Shown: piece after piece, positions 29,463 to 48,600 of the stretch
How positions within the stretch are numbered: the stretch's first letter is position 1
How the letters are laid out: each line of letters starts with the position of its first letter
From: Sordariomycetes sp. S80-01Y
Lineage: Eukaryota > Ascomycota > Sordariomycetes
Assembly (NCBI GenBank): GCA_037042185.1
Contig: JAXQJY010000023.1
Span: 124,001-188,000, forward strand
Length of the DNA: 64,000 nucleotides
Reading direction: 5' to 3'
Made by a program: the position numbers and the translations under genes
The notes under the pieces: generated by a model
What the model was told of the DNA's origin: nothing
What the model saw: only the letters and a program-made list of their open reading frames with translations
Databases searched by the model: none

Positions 29463-32400
29463 TCATTCCAAGACGCGAGAACGCGGCTTCTCCACCAAAA
29501 AGCGCGCGACATCAACCACCTCATCCAGCAACTCGCGCGCGTAGTCCGCCCAACTTTCAATCGTGACAATCTCCAAAGTCATCTTGTCGCCACTAAAGAA
29601 AGCCTGCAACTTCCATTCACGCAAAGGCTCTTCATGCGCGTAGAGTGTCTCCATGCGACTGCCTGTTGTCGAAAGTCCCAAGCTCTCAACGTGCTCGACG
29701 TCCTGGTGGACGACTGTGTCGAACCAGTCCACGTCCGATGGCCAGTCAGTGCAGTTCTCGGCAATTTCCCTGATCCCCATACATTCGTGCGCCGAACTTG
29801 CTACGTGTTGGTGCTGCACGTAGTCGAGCAGGTCGAGGACTGTCCATGCGGTATCGAACTTGACGCGGACAGGAATGTACTGCCAGCAGGGTCCAACCAC
29901 AGCGTCAGCGTTGGGGAAGTCAATGTTCCGCCCACTAACAACCTCTCCAAACGTCACGTCCCGAAGCGCCAAGCGCTTTGCTAGTGTTAATGCCCAAGCC
30001 GCTGTTGGTAAAGTGGCTGCTGTTGTTTCCCTCGGCCTCATGGAGATATCAATTGTCTTCTCGATAGCGAAGTGATTTTTCCTCTCTGGCGGTGCTTCGG
30101 GCTTCAAAACTGTCATCTGCGAGCCTTGAAGCAGATCACGCCAGTAGGGAATACTCTCTGGGATACTTCTGCGCAGCAGGTGGCCGACGTAGGATGAGAA
30201 GGGCACCATGTCTTGCACTTCCTTGCCTTCATACAAAGCGGAGAGCTGCCGTAGGATAATTGGGAGACAGATCTCGTCATACTGAGCATGCGAAATGCGG
30301 AAAATGAGACAGGATTGTCCACCTTCTCCTTGTACAAGGAACCACTTGACAAAGCTTGAACCCAGCGGCATCTTGGTTAAGACGTCGAGATGGCACAACT
30401 TCTTAGAGAAGTCTTCCACGTCGCCATCTGTCTCATACTCGATGAAGTCGGGCCTCAGCTCTTCGAGGACTACACCAAGGTTCTGACCTTGATGCTCGAT
30501 GAACACAGTACGCAAGATCTCGTTGCGCTTCACGAGCTCCTCGCAGCTTCTAGTGAGTCTTTGCTTGTCAACACCCTTGTCGAAATACATCAGCTCATAT
30601 CTTGCTGAGAACCTCGGTATCGAAATAGTTCCTCTGATTGCGACTTCTTGCAAAGGTCTGACGGGCAGGGCATTGACGACCTTCCATCCGATATCTGCCA
30701 ACTGGGGTTGAACAACGTCCTGGATGAGAGCCTCACTGTCCACTTTTCCCAGAAGCTCAAAGGGGCCAACTTCATCTGCTACCGTCTTCGGCGCCTCTTC
30801 CTCCTTCATAGCCTTAGCCATATCGTATAATGAGCGAGCTTGGAATATTTGCATGACAGTCAAAGTCACGCCCTCAGCACGAGCTTCCGACACGAGCTTC
30901 ATTGCCGAAATCGAGTCGCCGCCGAGGTTGAAAAAGCTATCGTTGAGACTGATGCTGTCCTCTTCAATACGAAGAACGCGAGCCCAGAGGCTTCGCATCT
31001 TCTTTTGACGTCGAGAGCTAGCAGATACCTTCTTCGAAGGGGCATGATCCTTTGAGGTGATGGCATCACTCTTGGTGCTGGAATTTTCCACAATGACTAA
31101 CATCCCTTCTGAAGACCACTTCGCAAATTTATTGGTTCTGAAGAAGCGAGGAGATGTTCCCCGGCTCTCGTCCACGGCTTCCGCCCAATCTGGCTTCGGT
31201 AACTCTTCCCGATCAAGACTGTGTTCGGCGCCGACGATGACTTCGCCTACAGCGCCGATTGGCCTCAATCTGTTCGCGTCTCGAGGGTCAACAACGTAGG
31301 CGACGCTGGAACCGGGAAACTCTTGAGTCAAATTCTCTGGCAGTTGTCCTGAAGCCAGCGCTGCGGCTTTTGCAATATCGAGGGAAGCTGGGGAAGCCGC
31401 TCGTTCAACAGACGCACTTGCCTCCCCACATAGTTTCTGTGCTGTTTGTTTCAGCTGCTCCAAGACTTGCTCCATCACAGGCTTTTCTACCGTCTTGGAA
31501 TCAAAGCTAGCCATGATCAAGAACCCCTTGGGATCTATAGAGCAGACCAACATCAGCGCGTACGTGTTGAACTTCAGTGCCTCTTGGGCCGCCTCAGCGT
31601 CACCAGCTGGCACGAGACGGTTCGCGGGCAAATCTTCAGAGAGCGGCTCCTCGGCTGTGCTGGGATGAAGCACCAACCCTGTTCTCAGCTCACAAGCTTC
31701 CAGCGCGTCTGGGCTGAGCCGACGGATGTGCTGCAGACCGAAGTGCTCGTGCGGAATCTGGGCAACGTTCTGCTCCTGAATCTCTTGCAGGTAGTCTGCA
31801 ACCGCAGCTTCACGATCAATTTGAACGCGAACAGGGACTGTCGTAATCATAGGACCTTCGATCTCCTCGGCGCCAACGATGGGTGCATTCCTACCAGTCA
31901 AAGTCTCGCCAAAGATAATGTCGTCGGTGTTGATGTACTGCGATGCGACCAGCGCCCAGGCAGCTCTGATGATGGTCGCGACTGTGACATTGGAGGTCGA
32001 CTGCTGCTCCAGTGGCACATATAATTCAAGCAGCGAGTCGGCCTGAGTTTGGTATCCAGCATACGGCAGCGCTGGGAATTGAGGGCCATTCCCTCCGTCC
32101 AGTCGTTCTGTCCAGAACTTCGCGGACTCACTCCTGTCGTGTCCCATAAGGTACTTGATGAAGTGCTTGAAGTCAGCGGGACGACTGATTGTGTCTCCCT
32201 GGTAAGCCTTGTTCACCCGATCGACGACCAATGGCATAGCCCATCCGTCATACAGAGCGTGGTGCATCGTCAAGACGAAGCTCGTCTTCCCACTGGCCTC
32301 GTCTTGTATCAGAGCATATCGTACGAGGGGCGTACCGAGCTCCATAGCTTGGTCTCGATCAGCGATGAGGTACTCGTCCAAACTCGACCCGTCATGCCAC

Positions 32401-34754
32401 TGAAGCCCGCCGCGCACGACTACCTGCACCAGTCCCTTGCCTGGCACTTGAACGATTCTTGTTCTAAGTATCGGGCAGTCTTTTTGCGCCACATCGAAAG
32501 CTCTTATCAACCTCTCTCCTTGTTCTCTGCTATCAAGTCCGACGACTCGCTGAGCCACATACGCTTCCTTCACCTTAGCCGAAAGAGCCATCAAGGCCTC
32601 TTGTAGTGGCGTGCAAGGATAGATGTCTTCGACAGCATCGGTCTCTATTCCGCACAGCGCGGCCACGTCTTGACATGCCTGCTCTTGCTTCCAATCTGAG
32701 TCAAGTAGCGAGAACGGAGCGACATCCTCCTGGCTGGCTGCTGTCGAGGTTTTGGCTTTTCCAACCATGTCTGATAGGACAGGATATGTAAATACGTCGG
32801 CAACCGTCAATGTCAACCCTTCTTCTCGCGCAGCGGCGATGAGCTTCATCGCCCTCAGAGAATCTCCACCCAGTTGAAAGAAACTACTTTGCCGGTATAT
32901 CTGTGTCTCAGGTCCGAGAACCCGAACCCAGGCTTTTGACAGCTGTTTCTCTTCCTCCGTACTCGGCTCGTCCTTTGCTTCGTCGACAGATGACAATTTG
33001 CTAAGCTTCTCCCGTGGTATAGAAGCACCGATTGCCCTCAAGCTTTTCCGGTCGATTTTCCGCGAGACTAGGGTTGGCATGTCGCGAAGTGTGATGAATG
33101 CGGCTGGGACCATATACCGAGGCACCCTAACGCCCATGGTTGAGTCAATACTTGCGAGGGCAGAGGCCAATTCAGGACTCGGATCGATGATGAGATCTGT
33201 CGCCTCCGGGGGTGTCGAAGGGTTTGGCTCTGAGAGGAAGGCCACCAAAGTCGGAGCACCATTCTCTGGTTTCAGCACTTCTGCGGCAACCTTGACACCT
33301 GGAGCTAAGCAAGCTTGTAGATGGTGCTCAACTTCTGCTAGCTCTACACGCTGCCCTCGAAGCTTGACCTGCTGATCTTTCCGCCCAACGAACTCTATCG
33401 ATCCTGATGCGTTCGACTCGTATCGCACCAAGTCTCCTGTCTTATACAGCCGCCCTTGCCTCCCTGGTATGCTGCTGTGGCCGCTCGTCAGCCATGTTGG
33501 GCTGTATATGAAGACCTCAGCGGTTTTTGCGGGCTCCCCGAGATATCCAACACCAACGACCGGCCCCTCGATGAGCAGCTCGCCAACCTCGCCAACACCC
33601 ATGAGTCGATCGTGATCCTCTGGGTCGACGATCCACGTCACTCCGCCTACGCCCTTTCCGATTCCTGTCGATACCGTCACTCTGTTGTTGATAGTACATC
33701 CCACTGTACACTCGGACGGTCCGTATGCAATCACCAAATTGGTATGTTGGCTCCAATTCGCGGCGTCGCTGGCCCCTATCGCCTCACCGCCCAAGCCCAG
33801 AACCTCGAGTGAAGGGATGATGTCCGCGTCGAGAACTCGCGCTACTGAAGGTGTCATATGCACCATGTTTGCTTGACTGTCTCGAATGGCGCCGCTGAGG
33901 TCATTCATTCTCTTCTCTTCTGAAGGCACGCAAACTCGCCCTCCCATCGCCAGAGTACACAACATGCAGTCGATGCTCACATCGAACGCATAAGAAGGGA
34001 AGTCGAAGACCCTCGAGGTCGACTTGTACCCGACGGCCTCTGCTCTTGGCAACGCTCCACTTGTGTAGTTCTCGTGCGAAATGACCACGCCTTTCGGCTT
34101 GCCTGTGCTTCCAGAAGTAAAGATAATGTACATTGGTGTTGACGAGGGGACCTTTGGCAGTTCGACAGCGGGAAACTTCTGGGTAGAGTCAAAAAAGTCC
34201 CTCGATACAGCCAATACCTGGCCGTTGCCTGCTATCCTTTGCCCGAGATCGCTTTGAGCCACCGATGTGATCACGAGCTCCGCTTCTGTTTGTTCAACAA
34301 TCGTTCGCAAACGAGCTTCGGGCTGGCTAGGGTCTGTGAGTGAGAAGGTCGCTCCGGCCTTCATCACACCCAGGACCGAGACCACAGCCCACATCGACTT
34401 CTCGAAGCATAGCGGTAGTTTTGTTCCGATCGTGACGCCTCGGGAGATGAGGTGGCGGGCGAGTTTCGAAGAGAGCCGGTCGAGCTCGGCGTACGTAAGG
34501 GTGCCATCCCATGATTGTATGGCTACGGCTTCAGGCTGAGATTGACACTGTTCGGTGATGATGTCGTGTATGCAGGTTTGCAGCAGAGCCGGCACGTCTT
34601 TGTTCCATTGCCAGAGCTGGTCGAGGTCTGTCTCGGGAGGTTGGGTTCTCGATGCAGTCTGAGGCGTTTTGCTTTGAGGCTGCTCAGAATGCACTCCGTT
34701 GGTGAGTCCCATGGAACCAGCACCGCCGGCGCCGTCGTTGTCAATGATTCTCAT
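29463..34754 (-). CDS. sidD: Siderophore NRPS, NPS6/SidD type
   Basis: A single exon of 1763 residues from the ATG at 34754. Domains in order: adenylation (about 50-575: FTSGSTGKPKG at 212-222, AYGPSECT at 343-350, GRLYKTGD at 434-441, ending MVPAAF... SRKIDRK); carrier domain T1 (LGGDSLRAMKL, Ser632); condensation C1 (about 705-1110, HHALYDG at 831-837); a remnant adenylation stretch (about 1146-1225, VAYVVDP... PIGAVGE) lacking the ATP core motifs; T2 (LGGDSISAMKL, Ser1281); C2 (about 1340-1755, with SHAQYDE at 1488-1494 where HHxxxDG is usual). A-T-C-(degenerate A)-T-C is the hallmark of the NPS6/SidD extracellular siderophore synthetases, which join three acyl-N5-hydroxyornithine units into a fusarinine- or coprogen-type product. 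The promoter carries SreA-type sites. The product cannot be read from sequence. Confidence 0.9.
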   Translation of the reverse strand: MRIIDNDGAGGAGSMGLTNGVHSEQPQSKTPQTASRTQPPETDLDQLWQWNKDVPALLQTCIHDIITEQCQSQPEAVAIQSWDGTLTYAELDRLSSKLARHLISRGVTIGTKLPLCFEKSMWAVVSVLGVMKAGATFSLTDPSQPEARLRTIVEQTEAELVITSVAQSDLGQRIAGNGQVLAVSRDFFDSTQKFPAVELPKVPSSTPMYIIFTSGSTGKPKGVVISHENYTSGALPRAEAVGYKSTSRVFDFPSYAFDVSIDCMLCTLAMGGRVCVPSEEKRMNDLSGAIRDSQANMVHMTPSVARVLDADIIPSLEVLGLGGEAIGASDAANWSQHTNLVIAYGPSECTVGCTINNRVTVSTGIGKGVGGVTWIVDPEDHDRLMGVGEVGELLIEGPVVGVGYLGEPAKTAEVFIYSPTWLTSGHSSIPGRQGRLYKTGDLVRYESNASGSIEFVGRKDQQVKLRGQRVELAEVEHHLQACLAPGVKVAAEVLKPENGAPTLVAFLSEPNPSTPPEATDLIIDPSPELASALASIDSTMGVRVPRYMVPAAFITLRDMPTLVSRKIDRKSLRAIGASIPREKLSKLSSVDEAKDEPSTEEEKQLSKAWVRVLGPETQIYRQSSFFQLGGDSLRAMKLIAAAREEGLTLTVADVFTYPVLSDMVGKAKTSTAASQEDVAPFSLLDSDWKQEQACQDVAALCGIETDAVEDIYPCTPLQEALMALSAKVKEAYVAQRVVGLDSREQGERLIRAFDVAQKDCPILRTRIVQVPGKGLVQVVVRGGLQWHDGSSLDEYLIADRDQAMELGTPLVRYALIQDEASGKTSFVLTMHHALYDGWAMPLVVDRVNKAYQGDTISRPADFKHFIKYLMGHDRSESAKFWTERLDGGNGPQFPALPYAGYQTQADSLLELYVPLEQQSTSNVTVATIIRAAWALVASQYINTDDIIFGETLTGRNAPIVGAEEIEGPMITTVPVRVQIDREAAVADYLQEIQEQNVAQIPHEHFGLQHIRRLSPDALEACELRTGLVLHPSTAEEPLSEDLPANRLVPAGDAEAAQEALKFNTYALMLVCSIDPKGFLIMASFDSKTVEKPVMEQVLEQLKQTAQKLCGEASASVERAASPASLDIAKAAALASGQLPENLTQEFPGSSVAYVVDPRDANRLRPIGAVGEVIVGAEHSLDREELPKPDWAEAVDESRGTSPRFFRTNKFAKWSSEGMLVIVENSSTKSDAITSKDHAPSKKVSASSRRQKKMRSLWARVLRIEEDSISLNDSFFNLGGDSISAMKLVSEARAEGVTLTVMQIFQARSLYDMAKAMKEEEAPKTVADEVGPFELLGKVDSEALIQDVVQPQLADIGWKVVNALPVRPLQEVAIRGTISIPRFSARYELMYFDKGVDKQRLTRSCEELVKRNEILRTVFIEHQGQNLGVVLEELRPDFIEYETDGDVEDFSKKLCHLDVLTKMPLGSSFVKWFLVQGEGGQSCLIFRISHAQYDEICLPIILRQLSALYEGKEVQDMVPFSSYVGHLLRRSIPESIPYWRDLLQGSQMTVLKPEAPPERKNHFAIEKTIDISMRPRETTAATLPTAAWALTLAKRLALRDVTFGEVVSGRNIDFPNADAVVGPCWQYIPVRVKFDTAWTVLDLLDYVQHQHVASSAHECMGIREIAENCTDWPSDVDWFDTVVHQDVEHVESLGLSTTGSRMETLYAHEEPLREWKLQAFFSGDKMTLEIVTIESWADYARELLDEVVDVARFLVEKPRSRVLE

Positions 34755-35130
34755 GTTGAGGCTCCGAAAAGGGCTCCGAGCCCATAGCACAAGCAGAGTT
34801 CCGTGGAAGCTTGAGCTCTCAACAGTGGCTCGTTGTCTTTCTAGTTTTGTACAATTGTATTCTCAAGCGAAGATTCAAGCAGCCAGCTACCAGGTTCAGA
34901 GATCTTGCAGCCTCACGAGCAATCATTCACATGACGCATTGCCTACTTTTCCAAGCAACCCTGGCAACACATCTGGCATAACGACCTACCGCATCGGCAC
35001 ATCGTCCCATCTCGAAATGTCACCCCACTGCTGCACTGCGACTTCGGCTTCGATTCTTCGAGGTACCTCTCGGTACTTTGCCTGGCCGGCACGTTCCTTG
35101 GAAGACGGCACCAGTGGCCGTTTCTCTCGG

Positions 35131-35139
35131 ATCAGATAA
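35131..35139 (+). promoter_or_regulatory. SreA-type GATA site
   Basis: A perfect ATCAGATAA, 377 bp upstream of the NRPS start codon. It matches the ATCWGATAA consensus of the iron-sensing GATA repressor SreA. Confidence 0.75.
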
Positions 35140-35193
35140 ATGCACGAGGGACTGATCATCCGTGACCAAGTGGGCCAAGGCGGGGCTCCATGG

Positions 35194-35202
35194 ATCAGAT
35201 AA
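35194..35202 (+). promoter_or_regulatory. SreA-type GATA site
   Basis: A second perfect ATCAGATAA in the NRPS promoter, 63 bp from the first and in the same orientation. Confidence 0.75.
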
Positions 35203-35678
35203 CTTGAGGGTGAGCTGTGATGCCGACGGAGTCATGAGAGACACCAGAGAGCCTCTGAGTGTTGGGTTTCGTCACTGGTGCATGGCATCTGCAATGATGT
35301 GGCCTTCAAGCCGTACCTTACGACAGAAATGTCTGGCTCGTCGTGTTTGATGCGAAGCTACTCAGCTCGTTTGCAACACCTCACAACCCACCACAGCACA
35401 GAAGTGCCGCTCACTGCCGAATCTGGACCCGAGCCGAACTAATGCTAAACATCCACCAGCCATGCACGAGCATCATCACCACTCCCCACCACCAATTACC
35501 AAATTCCCTCAGCTGCTTCCCACCTCTTCACCATCGTCCACTCAAGCCGAATGAAGCGGCATATTCTACAACGCTAGGACGGAACCCGGTCGAAAAAAAT
35601 TTGCCTCCTGCCGTGGGGTCGAACACAGCGTGTGTAAAGTGCAGCGGCTGGATATGGTGGGGTCGAGGGGGTGCAATC

Positions 35679-35687
35679 TTATCAGAT
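35679..35687 (-). promoter_or_regulatory. SreA-type GATA site
   Basis: A perfect ATCTGATAA on the minus strand, 385 bp upstream of the ligase start codon at 36072. A partial GATA-like repeat (CATCAGATTAG) follows directly. Confidence 0.75.
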
Positions 35688-36071
35688 CATCAGATTAGAT
35701 CAACCACTCAGCACCCGTCACGCACACCCCAGCACCCCTGGTTAGAGCCGGCGCGCCACCATAACCGTTACGTATTGGTCAATGTGTTTTTTTGGTGCCG
35801 AAGCCGATGGTCGGCGCACCTCGGAGGATGACGAAACAGGGTCCCTGACGAGCGGCTGGGTGTAATTTGTTCAGCGGCTGCACGAGCGAAGCCAGTCCGC
35901 TGTTGACGTAGGAGGCCGAGGTTTGGGCGGATGGGCCCATTGGTGAGACTGCTAGGAAGAGCCATCCTCAGAGTATATTGTCAACGCCGTGGTGGTTGCA
36001 TCGCAGGATCTTCATTTCATACAGCCAGCTTGCGGTAATCAACGACGCTCTCGTAGAAGCGAACCGCCGCC

Positions 36072-37898
36072 ATGACCCTCGAACCCACCACCATCCTGCC
36101 TCAGCAGTCACTTCCTGCTAAGCAGAAGCTCTCTGTGCTCCACGGTCCTTCAGACCCTCCACTCGTCGACCTCACCCTCTCCGAGCTGCTCGAGCTGCAG
36201 ACGTACCAACATGGCTCTTCGGAATGCCTCGTCATACCCTGGACCGGCGCGAGATGGACCTACAACGACCTGAATCAGCAATCCTCGGCCCTTGCACAGT
36301 CGCTGTTGGAGATGGGCATCGGTGTGGGAGATCGAGTCGGCATCATGGCTGGAAATTGCGAGCAGTATGCGGCCGTGTTTTTCGCCGTGGCCAAGATTGG
36401 GGCCATCTTGGTGATTTTGAATAACACGTACACGCCAACTGAGGCTATGTATGGGTTGAAGTTCTCAGATTGCAAGATATTTTTCACGACGAAGCAAATC
36501 GGACGATTAGACAACACGCGGCTGTTGAGGGAGCTGGCACACGAAGGCGACGGTCCCAAGGTGGTGATCCTCAGGGGTGACTCTACGGGCTATCCCACAT
36601 ACGAGGAGCTCATCAAGGGCGCTTCTCGGAAGGGTCAAGAGAAGCTGCAACGAGCAATACGCAAGGTTCTTCCCCATCAGGTGGTCAATTTGCAGTTCAC
36701 TAGCGGAACGACGGGGCTGCCAAAGGCCGCGATGCTCACTCACCAGTAAGCTACTTCTCTCTTCCCTGACTTCTATTGCTAACCCTGGTAGTAATCTTGT
36801 CAACAACTCCCGGTTTATCGGCGATCGAATGCGTCTGACCTCTTCTGATATTCTTTGCTGCCCGCCTCCGCTGTTTCACTGCTTCGGTCTCGTCCTTGGC
36901 CTTCTTGCAGTGGTCACTCACGGCGCCAAGATTGTATATCCAGCGGAGGTGTTCGACATCCCAGCTACACTTCAGGCCATTTCTGATGAGAGCTGCACGG
37001 CAGTGCATGGTGTGCCGGCGATGTTCGACTCCTTATTCCAAGCACCCTTCCCCGAGGGATTTAGCTGTGAGAACCTCAGGACGGGCATCATTGCCGGTGC
37101 ACCGGTACCCCGATACCTCATGGAGCTCCTAGTCAACAAATTCGGCATGACCGAGTTCACCTCTAGCTACGGCCTCACGGAAGCCAGCCCGACCTGTTTC
37201 AATGCCTTCACCGACGACGCCATGAACAGGAGACTGTCAACCGTCGGTACGCTCATGCCGCACGCTCAGGCTAAGATCGTCGACCGTGAGGGCAATATTG
37301 TGCCAATTGGTCAAAGGGGAGAACTTTGCATGGCTGGCTACCAGCTACAAGCAGGCTACTGGAACAACTCGGAAAAGACGAATGAGACTATGATCAGGGA
37401 TGAGAAGGGCGTTTTGTGGCTGCATACGGGCGACGAAGCGGTATTTGACGAGGAAGGCTACTGCACTATTACGGGGCGTTTCAAGGACATCATCATTCGA
37501 GGTAAGTCACTTCTTCAACTTTCCTCACACAACAGCAAAACTGACAAAGACCGCCAGGTGGCGAGAACATCTATCCACTCGAGATTGAAGAACGCCTCGT
37601 GGCACATCCCGCCATTACCCGCGCCGTTGTTGTCGGTCTGAAGAATGAGCACTACGGCGAGGTCGTCGGTGCGTTCCTGGAGCTAGCAGAAGATCACAAG
37701 AAGCCGACGGATAAGGAGCTGAAGGAGTGGATCCGCAGCAAGCTGGGGAACCACAAGAGCCCGGCGCACATCTTCTGGCTGGGGCACGATGGCGTCCCGG
37801 CTGACGTACCTTTGACGGGGAGCGGCAAGGTGAGGAAGTTTGAGATGGCGAAACTGGGTGACGAGATTCTGAAGAAGACTACAAGTGCGAAGTTGTAG
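36072..37898 (+). CDS. sidI: SidI-type acyl-CoA ligase of siderophore synthesis
   Basis: Exons 36072-36745, 36792-37501 and 37558-37898, with introns of 46 and 56 nt, give 574 residues. AMP-forming ligase motifs are all visible: TSGTTGLPKAAMLTH (about 212-226, interrupted by the first intron), SYGLTEASPT, HTGDEAVFDEEGY, GRFKDIIIRGGENIYPLEIE (crossing the second intron) and the catalytic-lysine motif GSGKVRKFE. The protein ends in AKL, a peroxisomal PTS1 signal. SidI of Aspergillus activates mevalonate to mevalonyl-CoA for fusarinine-type siderophores. That role is inferred here from the position head to head with the NRPS and the shared SreA-type sites. A different acyl substrate is possible. 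Confidence 0.86.
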
Positions 37899-38026
37899 AA
37901 AAGCGGAGTTTGGGTTAGATGTCGTTTCATATTGTGTATATGCCTGGCGTAGTATTTGACTTGAATAGACAAAAGACAAGATGTATTTAATTTAACGCCT
38001 AAATTTTCAACATCGTGTTGCCATCC
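37899..38026. other. Convergent spacer, ligase / transacylase
   Basis: A 128 bp A/T-rich gap between two convergent stop codons. It must hold both polyadenylation regions, so the two transcripts may overlap. Confidence 0.5.
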
Positions 38027-39421
38027 TTACAATTTGGGCACCAGGCCAATCTTCATCCCGCCAACTTGCTTCTCGCTCTCCCCCAGGGGACACAGCTGGA
38101 AGAACCTCTCCCGGTTGCACTTGACAAAGGCACTCCTCTTGTGCGGCAGATCCACAAACTTTTCCAACCCGAAGCCGTGAATCAGGTCGTACATGACGAC
38201 TGTGGAGTTGATGTCCTTGGGCTCGCCGACGACGTACTGCGTGCGCGGGTCGTCGAGGAAGAGGAAGTGCATGAGCGAGGACCACCAGGCCGACACGCGG
38301 TGAGGTCCGCGGAAGCGCACGTCGCCGACGAGGGAGTGGCGGCCGCGGTCGAAGTCGTTGGCGTCGAAGTAGCCGCCGAGACGGTCCTCCTGCGGCTTGT
38401 TAGCGATTCTGCGCTGTCTAGATTGAATGGCGGGGGTGCGTACCTTGGCCCAGTAGATTTCAAAGTAGGCAAAGGGCACGTCGTCCCAGTACGCCAGCAC
38501 GGCGACTTGGTGAGGATCAACGTGGATTTTGCGAAGGTACTCGCGGTGCTGCTCCTCAGTGCCAGTCTCGTTCCAGCCTTGAGAAACGCGAGGGTCGTTC
38601 TGCCACTCGTGGAACAGACGCAGGTGCTCCTTGTCCTCCCAGTCGAGAGACACCATGGAGAACGTCTCCTTCAGATGAGGAATCCAGCGGCTGTAGATCG
38701 TAGCGCCAGGCGCCGGCTTCGCAGGCCTGATCGGGTGCCATGCTTGCATAGTACGCTCGGGGTCTTCCGGGTCGCCAACGGTCTGGATAGACATGGTGTT
38801 GTGGTAGGGCGTAAGAGGGTAGGAGCCGAGCGGGTTCTCGAGGGAAGCCGGCGATTCCTGGGGACACCAAACAGGACGGGGTCCGAAAGGCGAGCCGGCG
38901 CCCTGCCAGAAGGTGCTTCGCAGAGCCAGAATGGAAGCTTCGTTGCTCGACGTAGGAGGTGTAACACTCTGCTTCCTCGGCAAAGGGTGCTGCACAGCAA
39001 GCAAAACATCCACAAGCTGCTGCCCCAGCTTCTGCGCGTTCTTTCCCTTCAACTCCAGTCTCAAGGACTCCATCGACGGCCTGATAGTAAACAGGACGTA
39101 CAGAAGAAGCCAAGCCTGCGACAGAGAAGGCTTCTCGTCATCCCACTGGATCTTGGAGCACGGCGAGCGGCGAGCTCTCGCCCAAGGACCGTTGTTGCCA
39201 TCCGCAGGTCGTTCGCTCGATTTAAGATCAACGGGTTCAGAGAATCGAAGTGAAGAATTGGCGAGCTCGAACGGCGGGTTCTTCTTGGAAGTAGCAGCCT
39301 TCTCAGAAATCTTGTACAAAGACTCGGAAGCGGCCTGAACCGTGTACTCGGTTTGGTACGGATGAGGAAGCTTGATGATGGTCTCCTCTGGGGAGAGGGA
39401 GCTCAATTGAACGAGAGACAT
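38027..39421 (-). CDS. sidF: SidF-type hydroxyornithine transacylase
   Basis: Minus-strand exons 39421-38444 and 38389-38027 give 446 residues. The C-terminal half (about 240-440) is a GNAT-type acyltransferase of the IucA/SidF/AlcB kind: FHEWQNDPRVSQGWNE, AYFEIYWAKEDRLGGYFDA, DVRFRGPHR, VGEPKDINSTVVMY and FEKVDLPHKR-like segments. SidF moves the anhydromevalonyl group from CoA to N5-hydroxyornithine. The 54 nt intron is in frame with no stop, so the unspliced frame is also open; splicing was chosen because it restores the family's YWAKEDRLGGY. The tail PKL resembles a PTS1 peroxisomal signal, as known for SidF. The start is the ATG at 39421. The gene shares a promoter with the transporter and is convergent with the ligase. 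Confidence 0.88.
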   Translation of the reverse strand: MSLVQLSSLSPEETIIKLPHPYQTEYTVQAASESLYKISEKAATSKKNPPFELANSSLRFSEPVDLKSSERPADGNNGPWARARRSPCSKIQWDDEKPSLSQAWLLLYVLFTIRPSMESLRLELKGKNAQKLGQQLVDVLLAVQHPLPRKQSVTPPTSSNEASILALRSTFWQGAGSPFGPRPVWCPQESPASLENPLGSYPLTPYHNTMSIQTVGDPEDPERTMQAWHPIRPAKPAPGATIYSRWIPHLKETFSMVSLDWEDKEHLRLFHEWQNDPRVSQGWNETGTEEQHREYLRKIHVDPHQVAVLAYWDDVPFAYFEIYWAKVRTPAIQSRQRRIANKPQEDRLGGYFDANDFDRGRHSLVGDVRFRGPHRVSAWWSSLMHFLFLDDPRTQYVVGEPKDINSTVVMYDLIHGFGLEKFVDLPHKRSAFVKCNRERFFQLCPLGESEKQVGGMKIGLVPKL

Positions 39422-39957
39422 GATTTCGAAGCTGTTTTTCACGATTACACTGCTTCGCGAAGAGTCGGATCAATAGATGAAGGAAGCTGCGATAATCGTG
39501 GACGAGCTCCAGGACAGCTTCAGACCACCTCCAGACCCCAGGGTTCAGTGACGCGACCGATCGGCAGTCCAGCTCTGGCGCAGGCTACGTAGCCCATCGT
39601 CTGCCGTTCCTCGGCTCACCATGATCCATTGATTGCTGCACACCAGGTCAAGCCATTGACCTCACACCCAACCTTGGACGGTGCGTCGTCTGCACCAGCG
39701 CTCCACCAGCAATTATCAGATCGAGGCGCACATCCTCATTCGTCGGGACGGCAGGATCGTCAGCAGCCAGCGTTCCATGGAAGAAAGCAGTGTCCCAAAA
39801 GCGACAAGGGTCGGCACGTTTACCATCAAGCGACGGCGTAGCGGTACGTACAGGGACAAGAGAGAAATTCCCTCACGAAGCACGAGGGGGGGCCCGGCCT
39901 TGATGAGAATGTGGTGGTGGTTGGGCGGCCACTGAGAGGTCGGCTTGGCCAAAGCGG

Positions 39958-39966
39958 ATCTGATAA
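39958..39966 (+). promoter_or_regulatory. SreA-type GATA site
   Basis: A perfect ATCTGATAA, 537 bp upstream of the sidF start codon. Confidence 0.75.
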
Positions 39967-40070
39967 TTCTAGCGGCCAGGGTCCAGCGACGCCACGGCCC
40001 AATGAGGAAACTTATAGGCGCCGTGGACCCCCGTCTAGCCATGAAGCTCCGAGTCCGGCGTTGTGGGCGC

Positions 40071-40079
40071 ATCTGATAA
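40071..40079 (+). promoter_or_regulatory. SreA-type GATA site
   Basis: A perfect ATCTGATAA, 650 bp from the sidF start and 867 bp from the transporter start. A CCAAT box lies about 70 bp away. Confidence 0.75.
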
Positions 40080-40945
40080 AAAATTTCTCAGGAAAAAGGT
40101 CGTCCCACCTTGAGCTCAAACCATTGTCACGGGCGCCCTCCTTGTCCTGTGCTTGAAACAATTGGAAACCTTGTGGGTGCTGGGCTTGGGCTGCGTCCAT
40201 CGTGGCGGATCACTTACACCTCGATGCGCCATGCCAGCCGCGTCAACTCTACCGAGTACTAATCGCCCTCTCTCGCCTCCAGTCAACACAGTCTCGGCAG
40301 ACGGCCATTGCCGGGTTGCCAGAGCCCTTGTCAACCTCTGCCAACCTCGCGCTCCCCCGTAGCGCCTCCTCCTTCGGGGATGGTTCCCTCCCAAGCAGCT
40401 CTTCCAGAACACTTCCAGCGAACCTCGTGCCACCTCGCAGCTCCAAGCGGGGCCATTGTGCTCGAACGAGCCCATTTTGCACGATCCAGACCATCTTCGC
40501 GCGAGTCCCTCCATTGCAAATTCTGCAAGGCTGCTCCGAATCTATCTGATCCCTCACGAATCATGGCCGAATTGTGCTTGTCTTCCCCCCCTCGGCGACA
40601 ATAAGCTTTTTCTGCCCACAAGCTTAGATCTAGGCCCCATTGGTCGCGTGATGGTTTCGAGCGCAGCATCGTCGTTTTTGTGGGCTTGCAGATGGTGATC
40701 TGGGCATTTACTGGTTTGCCTTTGGTCCCGGAAATCTCCATCTGACGCGGTCTCACCGGCGCCACGTTTCTTGGAACGCCCTCGGCAAGGGTCTTCCATC
40801 GCTTGGCGGGCGTACTTCGCGGAGAAAATAAGACCATCGCTCTGTCCTTGTTTCGTGGATTCTTCCTTCTTCACTCGTTGTAAACCTTCTCCTCTCCCCA
40901 ATCTGGTCAAGACCGTAGTCTCCTGGTGAGAAGAAGCTAGCCGAG

Positions 40946-42712
40946 ATGGCCTCCAACCAGCCCCAGCCCGTTATGGCCGAGGACAACTACGCGTCAGACG
41001 CCGCGCAAAAGGAGGCCCAGACCACCGCGGCCGCCCATCCTGACGCCGACTACACCGACAGCGACCATGAGTCCATCGACAAGGACGCCCAGGCCGGTGT
41101 CCAGGACATCGAGGCCACCACGTCCGTATGGACAAAGAAGGCCCTCATCTTCGCCTACGTCTGGATCTGGGTGATTTACTTCGTCAACACCATGCAGCAG
41201 GGCACTTCCAACTCCCTGCTCCCCTGGGTGACTTCTGCCTTCCAGCAGCACTCCCTCACGCCGACTGTTTCCATCATGAGCTCCATCATTGGCGGTGTCA
41301 GCAAGCTGGCTATCGCGAAGATGCTGGACGTCCTGGGACGTCCTACGGGCTACATGGTTACCTTGGTCATCTCGACTCTCGGTCTCATCATGATGGCTGC
41401 CTGCAACGGCGTGCAGATGTACGCGGCTGCCCAGGTCTTCTACTGGGTCGGTTACAACGGCTTCAACTTCTGCCTCAGCATCTTCATTGCCGACACGTCG
41501 CACCTGCGCAACAGAGGTCTCATGTTCGCCTACATCGCTTCGCCCTACATCATCACGACCTGGCTCGGCGGTCCCATCAGCGAAGCCTTCCTCAACGGTC
41601 CCGGCTGGCGATGGGGCTTCGGAACCTTTGCCATCATCGTCCCCATCTTCCAGCTGCCGCTCTGGTTCCTGTTGGTGCACTACCACCGCGTGGCCAAGAG
41701 CCGTGGCCTCATCAAGAAGCGCGAGAGCGGACGCAACATGTTGGAGTCGGTCCGCCACTACATCCGCGAGTTCGACCTTGTCGGCCTCCTCCTGATCATC
41801 GGTGGCCTCTCCCTCTTCCTCCTGGCGTTCAACTTGGAGCCCAACCAGCCCAAGAGCTGGGAGTCGCCCCTGGTGCTCTGCTTCCTCATCTTCGGCATTG
41901 CGCTGGTCGCTGCTTTCGCCGTCTGGGAGAAGTTCTTCGCCAAGGTCACCTTCATCCCCTACGAGCTCCTCCTCGACCGCACCGTCGTCGGAGCCTGTAT
42001 CCTGGCCGCCACGCTCTTCGTCAGCTTCTACATCTGGAACTCGTACTTCAGCTCGTTCCTCCAGGCCGTTGTCGGTCTTACCATCACCGAGGCATCCTAC
42101 GTTGCTCAGATTTACAGCGTTGGATCCTGCTTCTGGTCCCTTGTCGTCGGTGTCGGCATCCGCTACACCGGACGCTTCAAATGGATTGCCCTCTACTTTG
42201 GTGTCCCCGTCACCATGCTCGGCGCTGGTCTCATGATTGTCTTCCGTCAGCCCGGCGTCAACGTGGGCTACATTGTCATGTGCCAGATCTTCATCGCCTT
42301 CGCGGGTGGTGCGTTGGTCATTACCCAGCAAGTCGCTGTCATGGCTGCCACCGTTCACCAGCACGTCGCCGTTGTCATCGCCATCGAGGGCATGTTCTCT
42401 TCTATTGGCGGCGCCATCGGCTCAACCGTCTCGTCTGCGATCTGGCAGAACGTCTTCCCCCGCGCCCTGGCCCGTCACTTGCCGGAGTCTGAGCAAGGGA
42501 ACCTGACGGCCATCTACGGCGATCTTGCCGTTCAGGTTGGATACCCCTGGGGAAGCCCTGGCAGGATTGCGATCCAGGATGCGTACGGTGAGGCTGTCCG
42601 CTACATGCTTATTGCGGCTACAACAATCCTCGTGCTGGCGCTCGCCGGTGTAGCCATGTGGAGGGACATCAAGATCAAGGACATGAAGCAGGTCAAGGGT
42701 GTTGTTGTTTAA
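40946..42712 (+). CDS. MirB/SIT-type siderophore transporter (MFS)
   Basis: A single exon of 588 residues. After an acidic cytosolic N-terminus of about 65 residues come about 14 hydrophobic segments, the count usual for the siderophore-iron transporter branch of the major facilitator superfamily. Recognisable stretches include YVWIWVIYFVNTMQQGTSNS, AKMLDVLGRPTGYM, GYNGFNFCLSIFIADTSHLR, the late QQVAVMAATVHQHVAVVIA and the family loop VQVGYPWGSPGR. The relatives import ferric triacetylfusarinine C or related hydroxamates across the plasma membrane. Position beside sidF, with SreA-type sites in the shared promoter, supports uptake of the cluster's own product. Third positions are strongly biased to C/G, which leaves long open frames on other frames and the opposite strand. 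Confidence 0.9.
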   Translation: MASNQPQPVMAEDNYASDAAQKEAQTTAAAHPDADYTDSDHESIDKDAQAGVQDIEATTSVWTKKALIFAYVWIWVIYFVNTMQQGTSNSLLPWVTSAFQQHSLTPTVSIMSSIIGGVSKLAIAKMLDVLGRPTGYMVTLVISTLGLIMMAACNGVQMYAAAQVFYWVGYNGFNFCLSIFIADTSHLRNRGLMFAYIASPYIITTWLGGPISEAFLNGPGWRWGFGTFAIIVPIFQLPLWFLLVHYHRVAKSRGLIKKRESGRNMLESVRHYIREFDLVGLLLIIGGLSLFLLAFNLEPNQPKSWESPLVLCFLIFGIALVAAFAVWEKFFAKVTFIPYELLLDRTVVGACILAATLFVSFYIWNSYFSSFLQAVVGLTITEASYVAQIYSVGSCFWSLVVGVGIRYTGRFKWIALYFGVPVTMLGAGLMIVFRQPGVNVGYIVMCQIFIAFAGGALVITQQVAVMAATVHQHVAVVIAIEGMFSSIGGAIGSTVSSAIWQNVFPRALARHLPESEQGNLTAIYGDLAVQVGYPWGSPGRIAIQDAYGEAVRYMLIAATTILVLALAGVAMWRDIKIKDMKQVKGVVV

Positions 42713-43015
42713 GACATTTCCAGACTTGATCAATGTTCTTGGCGGAAAAAGAGACGCAAATTATGCAGAGTGAAGAAATACGAAATCTATAGAAATGATT
42801 AATGTTAATACGATCTTTGTCATTCTGTTGTAGTTGTCGGGTAAGGAATTTTTGATGACTTTGGAAGGGTATATGTCATTGAAATGTCGCATATGAAATT
42901 GAATCTATCGACTTGAGTCTGAAACAAATGTGTATGTAATGTAATGTCTGGGATCCCTTGATGCCATATCCTAAACGCCGGTAAACCTCCGCACCAACTT
43001 GCATTGTACGTGTCG
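42713..43015. other. Convergent spacer, transporter / oxidoreductase
   Basis: About 300 bp of A/T-rich sequence between two convergent stop codons, holding the two 3' UTRs. A TTATCAG word at 43075, just beyond it, lies in the oxidoreductase's last intron and matches only 7 of 9 SreA-motif positions, so it is not counted. Confidence 0.4.
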
Positions 43016-44673
43016 CTATGCCTTGATCTCCTCCTTCCGGCCGGCGAGCTGCATGTAATTCCAGCAAACTGCGTCTTATCAGCATGAAACTCTTCAGTTA
43101 TCTCATATCGGGCTCACTCACTGTCAAAGCCGAGGTCATCTCTGAAGTAAGCGTGCATGATGTCCTCCCCGCTCAGCGTGCCAACCTCGGGTCCGTAGGC
43201 CACGGCCTTCTTGCCCACAGCCAGCCCAATCATGGGCGGTACGGGGTCCAGGATCTGGAACTTCGGTTCGTGCTCCTTGACGAGTCTGCCCATGATGGTT
43301 TGGTGGATGTTCTGGGCGATGTAGTGCCCGTGGTGCATGGCGCCGCCGCAGCGCTTGATGCCGGACCAGAGGGTTGCGTCGCCACCGCTGAAGTGGACGT
43401 TTGCGTTGGCGATGTTCTCGGGGAACATGAGGCTAAATTATTAGTATGATTGCATTGAAGGAGGTGTCGACTGAAAAGTAGACTTACTTGTTGCGGATCT
43501 TGACCAAACCGTCATCTGTGAGTGCCTCTTTGGGTAGGTATGTAGTTGTAGGCTCGTGCTTAGACATGGCCATGACGACGGCACTCGCTGAGATCTTCTT
43601 GCCGTTTGTGAACTCAACGTCGTACTTTGGTGCGCCGTCGCCGGTCTCAACGCTCTTGCTCTCCTTTAGCCGGTGAGACATCAGAACCTCAACACCAGCC
43701 TCCTTCAGCAGCTCAAGCGCCCGGTCCTTGGTCTCATCAGGGAGACCCTCGCTGCTGAGAAGCTTCTCGCGCGAGTGGACCAAGGTGACCTTGATATCTG
43801 GCTTCACCAACTTCAGCTCCGCGGCCATCTCAATACCCACCGCACCGCCGCCCACCACGACAACTCCATCCCGCGCGTTCTTCACGGCATGGATGTGCTC
43901 CCCCGCCTCAATCAGGTACTGCTTCCTGGTCAGGCTCTGCGGGACAACAGGCCAGACCCGTCGCAGACCGGAGGCGGCGACGAAGAAGTCGTACTCGTGA
44001 GTGCTGGCGTGCTTGGTCGTGCCGTCGATGACGGTCGCCGTCTTATTCTCAGGGGAAACGTGGGTCACGGAGCCCTGAATGATTTTGACGGACGGATGTT
44101 GAATGGCAGGAATGTCTGTGAACTTAACCCAAGCCTTCTTTGAGTATTCCTCGTCGGCCAGCGCCAGGGGTGAGCCGATGAGGTGGACTGCGCTCACTGG
44201 TCAGTACGAAGCCTAGTCGGGAGCAAACATGAGAAGAAAGTCATACAGAAGCCGTCGCGCTCGTCGACGATGGTAATCTCGAGATCGAACTCGGGCAGGT
44301 CAGGGTGGTGCACATAAGGCTCCCTGGCCATCCTGGGGGAGAAGCCCTCCTTCAGATCCAGCAGGTTGAGCGTTGTGCAGAGCCCCGCGTAGGACCCGCC
44401 AGCGATGAAAACACGCACGCGCGCAGGCGATTCAGGCACAGACCCCATTTTGTCTACAGAAGATGAGAGGAAACGACTCTGAAAGAAAGAAGACGCGGTG
44501 GGAGCAATGAGGGTCCGAGGTTTGAGGATGAGGGAGGAGGGTCGGGTTTGGTGGTGGTGGTAGTGGCGGGGCAGGAGGGTTGGGAAGCGGCGCTGTGTCA
44601 GGGGTTTGGGGAGGATTCGCGGACCGAGGAGTACAAGTCGGATGTTGGGAAGAGAAAGTCGCAAAGGTGGCAT
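43016..44673 (-). CDS. AMID/FSP1-like FAD oxidoreductase
   Basis: Minus-strand exons 44673-44247, 44187-43488, 43432-43122 and 43068-43016 (introns 59, 55 and 53 nt) give 496 residues. Two dinucleotide-binding motifs are seen: GGSYAG (about residue 92, FAD) and GGGAVGIEMAAEL (about 252, NAD(P)H), with DERDGFFHLIGSPLAL and the C-terminal DICWNYMQLAGR typical of AIF-like/AMID proteins. These reduce quinones or other acceptors with NAD(P)H. The first intron's acceptor was placed to restore GFFHLIG. Starting at 44673 adds 75 arginine-rich residues without acidic ones before the late VDK, ending near SRFLSSS, like a mitochondrial presequence; the ATG at 44448 (MGSVPESP) would give 421 residues without it. 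It shares a promoter with the ABC gene, including four SreA-type sites, so an iron-linked role is inferred. Confidence 0.84.
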
Positions 44674-44907
44674 CAGATTTTGCTGGAGCGCAGCAGGTTG
44701 CTAAGAGACAAGACCTAGGAAATAGGCAGGCAAGATGCCCTTCATCTACTCAACAGACGCATCCTTCAAGGAGCCTGGCCAACAGCTCGGACAAGAAGCT
44801 ACACAAGTTCCCATGATCCCCAGAACCACCGTCCTGGCTCAGCACTTGCTTCAGCCGACCCACGAAGGTTAAAACACAGCCACAGCCCCCAACGTGCGGG
44901 ATCAAAG

Positions 44908-44916
44908 TTATCTGAT
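44908..44916 (-). promoter_or_regulatory. SreA-type GATA site
   Basis: A perfect ATCAGATAA on the minus strand (TTATCTGAT as read), 235 bp upstream of the longer oxidoreductase start. Confidence 0.75.
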
Positions 44917-44952
44917 CCGAGCAGGGTGGTGCGCATGCCGCACATGGCGTGA

Positions 44953-44961
44953 TTATCAGAT
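44953..44961 (-). promoter_or_regulatory. SreA-type GATA site
   Basis: A perfect ATCTGATAA on the minus strand, 45 bp from the previous site (start to start) and in the same orientation. Confidence 0.75.
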
Positions 44962-45179
44962 CGTCTCAGATGGGAGGCAGTCCAGCCGGCCCTCCGAGTT
45001 CGTCCCAGCTCCTACCTCGGGCCCGACCAGCTGTCGAGAACTGACCTGCGAGAACTGACCTGAGACGGTTGGGGACAAAAGACGGTGAGCTATTAGCCAA
45101 GAGCCAAGTGAGCCATTTACAGAACTGGACTGGACTGCGACGAATTGAAGGCTCGGCTCGGGTGGAATCGGCGTTCCGG

Positions 45180-45188
45180 ATCTGATAA
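45180..45188 (+). promoter_or_regulatory. SreA-type GATA site
   Basis: A perfect ATCTGATAA, 435 bp upstream of the ABC transporter start. Confidence 0.75.
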
Positions 45189-45213
45189 AACTGCTGGTCC
45201 CCGCCGCGTGAAA

Positions 45214-45222
45214 TTATCTGAT
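45214..45222 (-). promoter_or_regulatory. SreA-type GATA site
   Basis: A perfect ATCAGATAA on the minus strand, facing the previous site 34 bp away. Confidence 0.75.
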
Positions 45223-45622
45223 CCGTCAACCCCACCGCCCGACCCCGCCAAGCGCCCCGTCTTCGGCCACCGACCTCTTTTGTCACGGTACGTTCAGATA
45301 CCTCTTGGGCCAACGGCAGGGATGAAGCGCTGGCTGCATGACGGCCCACCAAGCGCGGTACTTGCAGACACCTGATGGTACATGCTCGTGGACGTTGCTG
45401 GCGGGAGGGTCTGCAGTCTGGACGAGTCGAGCCGAATGGACCCTGTGCTTGAGGGCCTTGCCGGGATTCGCGAGCCATGGCCCGATCACGCTGGTTGACG
45501 TCGTGTTTTAATTTTCTGTGCAACCCGTATAGCTCGTGGCAGACGTCCTCGAGCGGCTTGAACAATCCAAGATCATGAGGTGAAGACTCCAGCAGACTTC
45601 ATTCCTCTCCAACATCATCGCC

Positions 45623-48600
45623 ATGGGCTCCTCCAACGAGGTCGCCGAGAGCTCCTCCCAAAGGAGCAACCAAGCCGACTCCAAAGCTGTCGCTGCTCCC
45701 AGTCCAAAGCCCAAGGTGAGCAACTCCCACGCTTGCTATTGACCTCAAAGCTAGGGCTGACACGTCCAAGCGTATTCAAACTCTCACATCCTTCTTCCGC
45801 CTCCTCGTCTACGCAAACCCGACATGGCTCGACTACACCCTTCTCGTCGTTGGCGTCATCTCAGCCGCCGCCTCGGGCGTCCCGTATCCTGTGATGGGAA
45901 TCATCTTCGGCCAGCTCATTGACGACCTCAACGAAGCGTCTTGCGAGGTCCAAGCGACCGCGAGCAACGCCAGTGGCGTGCAAGACGCCGTCAATGAGAA
46001 GGTCCTGATTCTGGTGTACATCGGCATAGCTGGCTTCGTCTGCATCTACGTATACGTCGTCTCGTGGAGCATCTTCAGCCGACGCGTTGAGACCCGGCTG
46101 CGAGATCGCTACTTCAGCACCCTCCTCCGACAGGACGCAGCCTTCTTCGATACCCGTCAAGCGGGAGAGCTCGCCTCGCGGCTCAATGGCGATATCCAGG
46201 CCGTTCAGAGCGGCACGTCAGAAAAGGTCGGCCTGGTCATTGGCTGCATATCCTTCTTCCTGACCGCCTACATCGTCTCCTTCACCCGCTCGTGGAAGCT
46301 CGCCTGCATGCTCATTTCGCTGATCCCGGCGTTCCTGCTCATGGCCGCCGTCGGGTCGCATTTCACCCAGAAGTTTACCGGCGCCATGACTGATGCCATC
46401 GGGTCGGCAAGCTCCATCGCCCAGGAGACCTTGTCCCACATCGCCGTGGTCCAGGCGTTCGGTGCAGGCAAACGGCTCGAAGGGAAGTTTGCGGGAAAGA
46501 TGATTGAGGCCCAGTCTTGGGGAATCAAGAAGGCTTTGGCGGCCGCGGCCCAGGCTGGAGCGCTTTACTTCATTGCCTTCTCTGCGAATGCCTTGTCGTA
46601 TTGGCAAGGGAGTAGGGAAATTGCGAGTTCGGTTGACAAAGGGGGGGATGCCACGTCGGTGGGACAGATCTACACCGTCATCTTCCTCCTCGTCGATGCC
46701 TGCATTATTCTCGGATCCATTGCGCCTATTTTGCCCATTCTTGGAGGAGCTGCTGCATCTTTCGAGAAGCTCAAAGCGGACATTGAGACTCCCTCCGTTA
46801 TCGACTCATCGTCCGACGAGGGAGAGAAGCTGACAGCGCCAATCCAAGGAAAAATGTCCTTCAAGGATGTTTCCTTTGCCTACATTTCTCGTCCTGATCA
46901 GCCAGTACTGAAAAATGTTTCGTTTGAGTGTCCTGCGGGCAAGCAAACCGCTCTCGTCGGGCTATCTGGCAGCGGCAAGTCAACCATTGCTGGCTTGACT
47001 GCACGGTTGTACGACCCCTCGGAGGGCACGGTGTGTCTGGATGGACGCAATGTTAAGGATCTGAATGTCAAGAGCTTGAGAAGCTTCATGAGCTTGGTTC
47101 AGCAGGAGCCTTCTTTGCTTGACCGCTCGATTCTGGAGAACATTGCGCTCGGAATGGTCAACTCCCCGCAACCGGAGCATGATCGGTATCAGTCTATTCT
47201 TCTGAACTCTTCTCTGTCTGAGATTGCCGATAAGCTCAGAAACGGCGGTGATATAGAGAGCGTTGGTTCGTCGTATGGCCAAGACGTCACAGACCTGATC
47301 GGTCTTGTCCGTCACGCTGCCTCTCTGGCTGACGCCTCCGGTTTCATCGAGCAGCTCGAGAATGGCTACGGTACTCTGGTCGGTACAGGCGGCAAGTTGG
47401 TCAGCGGTGGGCAGAGACAGCGAATTGCGCTGGCTCGCGCGTTGATTCGGGACCCTCAAATCCTTATTCTGGACGAGGCCACTGCTTCGCTTGATTCGCA
47501 GAGTGAGCATCGAATCCAGACGGCCATCGAGTCCATTGCCAAGGGTCGAACAGTCATTGCCATTGCGCACCGACTTTCCACAATCAAGAATTCTGACAAT
47601 ATCATCGTCATGAGTCAGGGGAAGATCGTCGAGCAGGGTACTCATAGCGAGCTCATGGCTCTTAATGGGTCGTACGCTGGTATGGTACGCTTGCAAAACA
47701 TTGACACTGAACGCAAAGAAGACACCCCGTCGCTGTCTAGCACGGCAAGAGGTGATGTTGATGCCCTTTTGTCCGAGAACGGGTCTCTGGATGAGAAGAG
47801 GCCCGCCACAGCAATTACCCCTGACAGGGAAGAGGCTGGAGAGGTGAACGACGAGCCCAGGTCAAAGGATCCCAGAGTTGAGCTGGACTCTAACAAATCA
47901 TCTTGGTCGGTCACTAAGAGCCTCGGGCGAATGGTTCGCCCCAACCTCCTGTATCTTGTCCTTGCTGTCATCGCCGCAACCATTGTCGGCGCCACTTTCA
48001 TCGGTTCTGGTCTAGTCTTCGGTCACACCATCAGCGCCTTCAGCCCCTGCCAACCCAGCAACGAAATCCGCTGGGCGGGTCGGTTTTTTGGAGGCATGTT
48101 CTTTATGCTTGCCGTCGTCGAGCTATGCGCCTACACCATCAGTTGGTCGGGCTTCGGGTACGTCGCTGAGAAGCTCCTGTACAAGCTCCGCGTCCTCTCC
48201 TTCAGGTCCTTGTATGAACAGGACTTGGAATGGCACCAGTCTGGTGGTCGGACTTCGACCTCGCTGTTATCGGTCATCACGGCCGATGCGGCCGCCGTCG
48301 GTGCCTTCAGCGGCTCAATCATGGGCAACATCTACTCCATCGTTGTCAACTTCCTCATCGCGCTCATCCTCTCCCACATCTTGGCATGGAAAATTGCTAT
48401 CGTATGTCTTGTGACGGTGCCACTCCTTTTAGGCTCAGGTATCATGCAGCTGCGTGCACTGGCCAAGTTTGAGCGGAAGCACGCCGGAGCATTCTCGAGC
48501 GCTGTGGGCATTACCGTCGAGGCGGTCAACTCCTTCAAGACGGTCTCTTCGCTGTCGCTCGAACAGGAGATCATGAGCTCTTATCGCCGGGCACTCAAAG

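What the first reader, a model, noticed from the sequence alone, without database searches (positions are those of the whole stretch)
34755..45622. Nine perfect SreA-type sites confined to three divergent promoters
ATCWGATAA occurs nine times without mismatch in about 3.8 kb of divergent promoter: 35131, 35194, 35679, 39958, 40071, 44908, 44953, 45180 and 45214. For even base composition about one would be expected by chance in the whole 64 kb on both strands, and about 0.06 in these promoters. I saw none elsewhere by eye. The pattern marks six genes as one iron regulon and draws the cluster border between the TauD-like gene and the NRPS on one side, and after the ABC gene on the other.
Basis: partly seen in the sequence, partly recalled or inferred. 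Interest (0 to 1): 0.72.

Follow-up and report, generated by a model that had tools for sequence, protein, structure and literature searches.

The report
Iron-repressor sites marking siderophore gene cluster
A fungal six-gene cluster for making and moving an iron-scavenging molecule carries ten perfect copies of the known binding word of the iron repressor SreA in its three shared promoters, which is a well-known kind of control, with one less familiar double form of the word that recurs at other places of the same genome, some of them iron genes.

Summary
ATCWGATAA occurs ten times in the window (the nine given plus 39713-39721, minus strand), all in three divergent promoters (4.0 kb), none elsewhere; shuffles of these promoters average 0.03. 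All ten WGATAA words in the promoters are the full site, against 0 of 26 outside. The genes are a SidD/NPS6-type NRPS, a probable SidI-like acyl-CoA ligase, a SidF orthologue, an MFS and an ABC transporter, and an FSP1-related FAD oxidoreductase: the six functions, with the same motif, published for Histoplasma, in an order close to that of Scedosporium. The genome encodes SreA and HapX orthologues; four sites in 244 bases mark sidA and a divergent NRPS (probable sidC). So this is most likely an ordinary SreA-controlled extracellular-siderophore cluster; expression was not testable. The motif is not confined to it: 281 copies genome-wide, 149 for the reversed control. The one unusual item is a 19-bp double site, TTATCWGATSATCWGATAA (one mismatch at 35679-35697), at seven places against none for the reversed control, some beside iron genes (sidA, a ferric reductase), one inside a transposase frame. 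The paper searches made here found no description of it.

The parts
29463..34754 (-). NRPS of SidD/NPS6 type (A-T-C-T-C), single open frame
   Evidence: Pfam: one AMP-binding, two Condensation and two PP-binding stretches; second C domain at residues 1366-1765 from the TqaA matches; position of the first T is inferred; ATG at 34752-34754
36072..37899 (+). acyl-CoA ligase, SidI-like (AMP-binding), two introns judged by eye
   Evidence: Pfam AMP-binding over two open frames; sequence read; PDB best 4-coumarate-CoA ligase. SidI identity is inferred from cluster context
38027..39421 (-). hydroxyornithine transacylase, SidF orthologue
   Evidence: Pfam Acetyltransf_8; PDB 7qf6 SidF E 2.2e-118 over 31-462
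40946..42712 (+). MFS transporter (candidate siderophore transporter)
   Evidence: Pfam MFS_1 and TRI12
43016..44448 (-). FAD/NAD oxidoreductase, related to FSP1/AIFM2; same role class as Histoplasma OXR1 (orthology not tested)
   Evidence: Pfam Pyr_redox_2; PDB best FSP1 E 1.1e-14; exons judged by eye from three frames
45623..49736 (+). full-length ABCB-type ABC transporter, SitT/ABC1-like (orthology not tested)
   Evidence: Pfam ABC_membrane and ABC_tran; PDB ABCB family and a-factor exporter
34755..36071 (.). divergent promoter 1 (NRPS / acyl-CoA ligase), 3 perfect sites
39423..40945 (.). divergent promoter 2 (SidF / MFS), 3 perfect sites
44450..45622 (.). divergent promoter 3 (oxidoreductase / ABC), 4 perfect sites, no CCAAT word on either strand
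35131..35139 (+). ATCAGATAA
35194..35202 (+). ATCAGATAA
35679..35687 (-). ATCTGATAA, left half of the composite
35679..35697 (.). 19-bp composite TTATCAGATCATCAGATTA, one mismatch to TTATCWGATSATCWGATAA
39713..39721 (-).
39958..39966 (+). ATCTGATAA
40071..40079 (+). ATCTGATAA (the only one of ten not preceded by G)
44908..44916 (-). ATCAGATAA
44953..44961 (-). ATCTGATAA
45180..45188 (+). ATCTGATAA
45214..45222 (-). ATCAGATAA

Best explanation
The ten words are binding sites of the fungus's SreA orthologue, a two-finger GATA repressor. With enough iron SreA binds the three divergent promoters and shuts off all six genes; when iron is short it lets go and the fungus makes, exports and re-imports a fusarinine/coprogen-type hydroxamate siderophore. 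Each divergent promoter serves two genes, so three promoters cover the six genes. Steps shown here: the sites, their enrichment, the gene families, presence of SreA and HapX orthologues, the same sites at sidA and a divergent NRPS. Steps inferred: binding, repression by iron, the compound made, the exact roles of the ligase, oxidoreductase and transporters. The 19-bp composite in promoter 1 is most simply two SreA sites side by side in inverted orientation, possibly holding two SreA molecules.
For: Site count and controls. Gene set. SreA orthologue: two GATA fingers in one 483-aa frame with a C-x5-C-x8-C-x2-C spacer (that this spacer is typical of SreA is recalled). sidA at C9:113871-114965 (ornithine monooxygenase structures E 5.3e-128) with four sites at C9:116089-116342 in the space shared with a divergent NRPS frame (A, T, C, A domains). 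ATCWGATAA is the published SreA motif (PMC2610380, passages). Histoplasma has the same six functions under (G/A)ATC(T/A)GATAA (PMC2275787, passages). In Fusarium graminearum SreA occupies promoters with ATCWGATA, more so in excess iron (PMC10602907, passages). Mutation of such a site in the A. fumigatus ftrA promoter removes iron repression (PMC10294635, passages).
Against: No binding or expression data for this organism. The genome has nine GATA-finger matches besides the two of SreA (11), and other GATA factors could use some words. sreA and hapX have no perfect site in the stretches held (3.1 and 4.5 kb, with about 1.4 and 1.2 kb upstream of the frames), whereas A. fumigatus hapX is under SreA (PMC2610380, passage). 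FTR1 has no perfect site in the 1.5 kb held before it; the one near it lies past its 3' end. None of 18 ECH-family matches, among which sidH should lie, has a listed site within 4 kb (for the two matches on C16 seven unlisted sites could not be checked). In Scedosporium the mir gene of the cluster was not significantly induced by iron depletion (PMC5932178, passage).
Confidence: 0.92

Rival explanations
1. The words are bound mainly by another GATA factor (for example a nitrogen or light regulator), and the cluster is not primarily under iron control.
For: Eleven GATA-finger matches in the genome, two of them SreA's; GATA factors in general read HGATAR (recalled).
Against: Other GATA factors need only HGATAR (recalled), yet 10 of 12 HGATAR words in these promoters are the extended form against 0 of 94 elsewhere in the window; the genes are siderophore genes.
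Confidence: 0.04
2. The words are an artefact of the composition of the promoter DNA.
For: Genome-wide about half of the 281 copies are matched by the reversed control (149).
Against: Promoter-matched dinucleotide shuffles give 0.03 with at most 2; the flanks of the ten copies differ.
Confidence: 0.01
3. For the composite: the 19-mers are neighbouring sites without any joint function, or partly chance, not a binding unit of their own.
For: One of seven places lies inside a MULE transposase frame, and the 15-bp core also occurs at C13:1822330 near a zinc-ribbon frame; the window copy and the C15:343544 copy each have one mismatch; the offset was picked after seeing the site list.
Against: Expected number of inverted pairs at one given offset is 0.0006, observed 5 perfect among the listed sites; reversed control 0 with two mismatches allowed; flanking DNA differs from place to place, so they are not copies of a longer repeat (by eye); S is kept at the centre in 8 of 8 cores.
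Confidence: 0.3

Closest known systems
Histoplasma capsulatum iron-regulated siderophore genes (SID3, SID4, NPS1, OXR1, MFS1, ABC1, SID1; PMC2275787, passages)
   Same: The same six functional classes (plus SID1), induced in low iron, with (G/A)ATC(T/A)GATAA in their 5' regions; some in divergent pairs
   Different: Pairing differs (there NPS1/ABC1 and SID4/SID1); here the sidA gene lies on another contig beside a second NRPS
Scedosporium apiospermum sidD cluster, CDS2801-2806 (PMC5932178, passages)
   Same: sidD, sidI, sidF, mir and sitT together in nearly the same order by locus number; sidA next to sidC elsewhere, as reported there for T. reesei and C. higginsianum too
   Different: sidF and mir are swapped by locus number; sidL (CDS2796) belongs to that cluster there; an oxidoreductase is not named in the passages seen
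A. fumigatus SreA regulon and motif ATCWGATAA (PMC2610380, passages)
   Same: Identical consensus; sidA, putative siderophore transporters and a putative ferric reductase named among SreA-repressed genes
   Different: In Aspergillus sidC and sidI share a cluster and sidA stands alone (PMC5932178, passages)
A. fumigatus ftrA/fetC site TTATCAATCAGATAA (PMC10294635, passages)
   Same: An extended site with a GATAA on the other strand in front of it; shown by mutation to mediate iron repression
   Different: 15 bp with a one-base gap; the composite here is 19 bp, with two full sites around one S

Membership tests
SreA/Urbs1/Fep1 binding site | ATCWGATAA consensus | tested here: met
   10 perfect copies
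SreA/Urbs1/Fep1 binding site | over-representation upstream of iron-acquisition genes | tested here: met
   sidA/NRPS promoter 4 copies. Not met for sreA, hapX and the 1.5 kb before FTR1
SreA/Urbs1/Fep1 binding site | bound by SreA in vitro or in vivo | not testable with these tools
   no ChIP or EMSA
SidD/NPS6 extracellular siderophore cluster | NRPS with A-T-C-T-C architecture | tested here: met
   domain counts, second C domain; architecture as described for this family in PMC6737921 (passages). No tree of NRPS was made
SidD/NPS6 extracellular siderophore cluster | SidF anhydromevalonyl transacylase | tested here: met
   PDB 7qf6 E 2.2e-118
SidD/NPS6 extracellular siderophore cluster | SidI acyl-CoA ligase | tested here: inconclusive
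   AMP-binding ligase present; substrate class not resolved by these searches
SidD/NPS6 extracellular siderophore cluster | SidH hydratase | tested here: inconclusive
   18 ECH matches in the genome, none on the window's contig C6; sidH not singled out
SidD/NPS6 extracellular siderophore cluster | iron-repressed expression and siderophore made | not testable with these tools
   no expression or chemistry
SreA orthologue in the genome | two GATA fingers around a Cys-rich region | tested here: met
   L034, C13:1519370-1519954
CBC:HapX bipartite site | CCAAT followed at 10-13 bases by RWT | tested here: not met
   0 in the three promoters; promoter 3 has no CCAAT at all. Only CCAAT, not the wider CSAAT of PMC10602907, was tried

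The most novel reading that the evidence does not exclude
Core genes of the regulon use a distinct 19-bp double-palindromic operator, TTATCWGATSATCWGATAA (two full SreA sites inverted around one S, cores repeating every 8 bp), recognised by two SreA molecules together; it marks sidA and a divergent NRPS, the NRPS/ligase promoter of the window, a ferric reductase, an MFS, a BIM1-like gene and an FSP1-like oxidoreductase, and so extends the iron regulon to copper-linked and FSP1-like functions.
Probability: 0.35. Interest if true: 0.5.

Novelty: new member of a known kind. Interest (0 to 1): 0.33.

Why it matters
It supports from bare sequence that the six genes form one iron-controlled siderophore unit and gives exact sites to test. 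The double site, if real as a unit, offers a direct way to ask how a two-finger GATA repressor works as a pair and which genes form the core of the iron regulon.

Tried and rejected
Composition artefact: rejected by promoter-matched shuffles. HapX control through a CCAAT-N10-13-RWT element: none in the three promoters, so low-iron induction is more likely release from SreA; in F. graminearum the effect of HapX loss on acquisition genes is put down to more SREA (PMC10602907, passage). ftrA-type 15-bp site at C10:605286: it looked like the A. fumigatus ftrA/fetC element, but the only domain found in the four frames scanned there is an O-methyltransferase, and FTR1 lies on C12; dropped. Pair at C9:542450: inside a melibiase frame; taken as background. 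The MFS beside C14:92326 gave no blastp match to the window MFS at 1e-3, so its role in siderophore uptake stays open. sreA and hapX: no perfect site in the stretches held. sidH: not located.

Literature for the composite: string searches covering all four forms of either 13-base end and three degenerate spellings listed three different papers, one of them in both searches, none on iron or SreA by title and abstract start; a search needing five of six terms on SreA and palindromic or double GATA gave only PMC2610380. The paper library lacks most subscription journals, so this is weak evidence of novelty.

Of the 71 window ORFs, 31 were given to Pfam.
Full report
Observation. All nine reported copies of ATCWGATAA are at the stated coordinates, and a tenth lies at 39713-39721 on the minus strand. 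All ten fall in three divergent promoters that together span 4013 bases. Chance gives 0.51 per window, 0.03 for these promoters by shuffling and 0.037 by the genome-wide rate. The excess concerns the extended word: every one of the 10 WGATAA words in the promoters is the full 9-mer, and none of the 26 outside is. Nine of the ten are preceded by G, against 107 of 281 in the genome.

Genes. From left to right: an NRPS on the minus strand with one A, two T and two C stretches, an acyl-CoA ligase, a SidF orthologue (E 2.2e-118 to 7qf6), an MFS transporter, an FAD/NAD oxidoreductase whose best solved relative is FSP1 (E 1.1e-14), and a full-length ABCB-type transporter. Orientation gives three head-to-head pairs. 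No perfect site occurs elsewhere in the window. Outside the cluster lie, for example, PhyH- and TauD-family frames on the left and SPX-, citrate-transporter- and Vps39-family frames on the right. Of 71 ORFs listed, 31 were scanned with Pfam.

Genome. The window sits in a 30.87-Mb genome on contig C6. The word occurs 281 times against 149 for its reversed form; GATCWGATAA 107 against 36, CATCWGATAA 74 against 40, WATCWGATAA 100 against 73. The cluster here is the densest. The next are four sites in 244 bases at C9:116090 and four in 936 bases at C14:1342795. The C9 group lies between a sidA orthologue and a divergent NRPS frame with A, T, C and A domains. I take the latter as sidC because sidA and sidC are neighbours in Scedosporium, T. 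reesei and C. higginsianum (PMC5932178, passages); this was not tested further. The C14 group lies between a frame with a TRP-channel match just below Pfam's cut-off and a diflavin-reductase-like frame.

Regulators. An SreA orthologue is present: two GATA fingers in one frame of 483 aa with a C-x5-C-x8-C-x2-C spacer. A HapX orthologue is present at C5:739098 (Hap4-binding motif; its bZIP match is below Pfam's cut-off). Neither has a perfect site in the stretches held. The only perfect site near FTR1 lies past its 3' end. The three promoters contain no CCAAT-N10-13-RWT element, and promoter 3 has no CCAAT at all. Direct HapX activation is therefore not indicated by these words, and release from SreA is the simpler route.

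Composite. Inverted pairs of the full site at one exact offset recur: TTATCWGATSATCWGATAA is perfect at C5:305471, C9:116308, C12:98074, C14:92326 and C15:331129, and has one mismatch in the window (35679-35697) and at C15:343544; no place has two mismatches and the reversed control has none. The 15-bp core ATCWGATNATCWGAT has eight places against one for the control, with G or C at the centre in all eight. Of ten places with TTATC 0-20 bases before a full site (control: two rows), gap 5 has five, gap 6 two, and gaps 1, 17 and 19 one each. The expected number of inverted pairs at one given offset is 0.0006; the offset was chosen after seeing the list, but even many tries would not reach five. 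Neighbours, looked up afterwards: the NRPS/ligase promoter of the window; sidA and the divergent NRPS; a ferric reductase; an MFS gene whose first Met lies about 105 bases away; a BIM1-like frame; an FSP1-like oxidoreductase; and, against the pattern, the coding frame of a MULE transposase. The eighth core, at C13:1822330, lies near a zinc-ribbon frame. So three of eight are plainly iron genes, three are plausible and two are not. The A. fumigatus ftrA/fetC promoter has a related but shorter double form (PMC10294635, passages).

Comparison and verdict. The six functions and the motif were published together for Histoplasma (PMC2275787, passages), and the gene neighbourhood resembles the Scedosporium sidD cluster (PMC5932178, passages). 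This is a new member of a known kind. The composite may be a new variant of the operator, but it is unproven and was seen in one genome only.

Noticed in passing
G000:C15:343544-343562 and L053:1701-3018; window 43016-44448: Two diverged FSP1-related oxidoreductases in one genome each have SreA-type sites upstream, one in the siderophore cluster and one beside a one-mismatch 19-bp composite; they share 31-40% identity over short stretches.
   Followed up: partly
G000:C14:1342795-1343739 (L054): Four perfect sites in a divergent promoter between a frame with a weak TRP-channel match and a diflavin-reductase-like frame: a likely further SreA target pair.
   Followed up: partly
G000:C15:331129-331147 (L051:1501-1519): A perfect 19-bp composite lies inside an 827-aa MULE transposase frame, 12.4 kb from another composite; unexplained.
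   Followed up: no
G000:C5:305471-305489 (L047): A perfect composite about 600 bases from a BIM1-like (copper acquisition factor-like) frame, hinting at a copper-iron link.
   Followed up: partly
G000:C5:770928-773983 (L055): Three GATCWGATAA words in 3 kb, the last upstream of an MFS frame; three frames after the first two have no Pfam match.
   Followed up: partly
G000:C10:605280-605315 (L064): A dense run of GATA words (TTATCAGATTGATAAGATGATCTGATTA) upstream of a frame with an O-methyltransferase domain.
   Followed up: no
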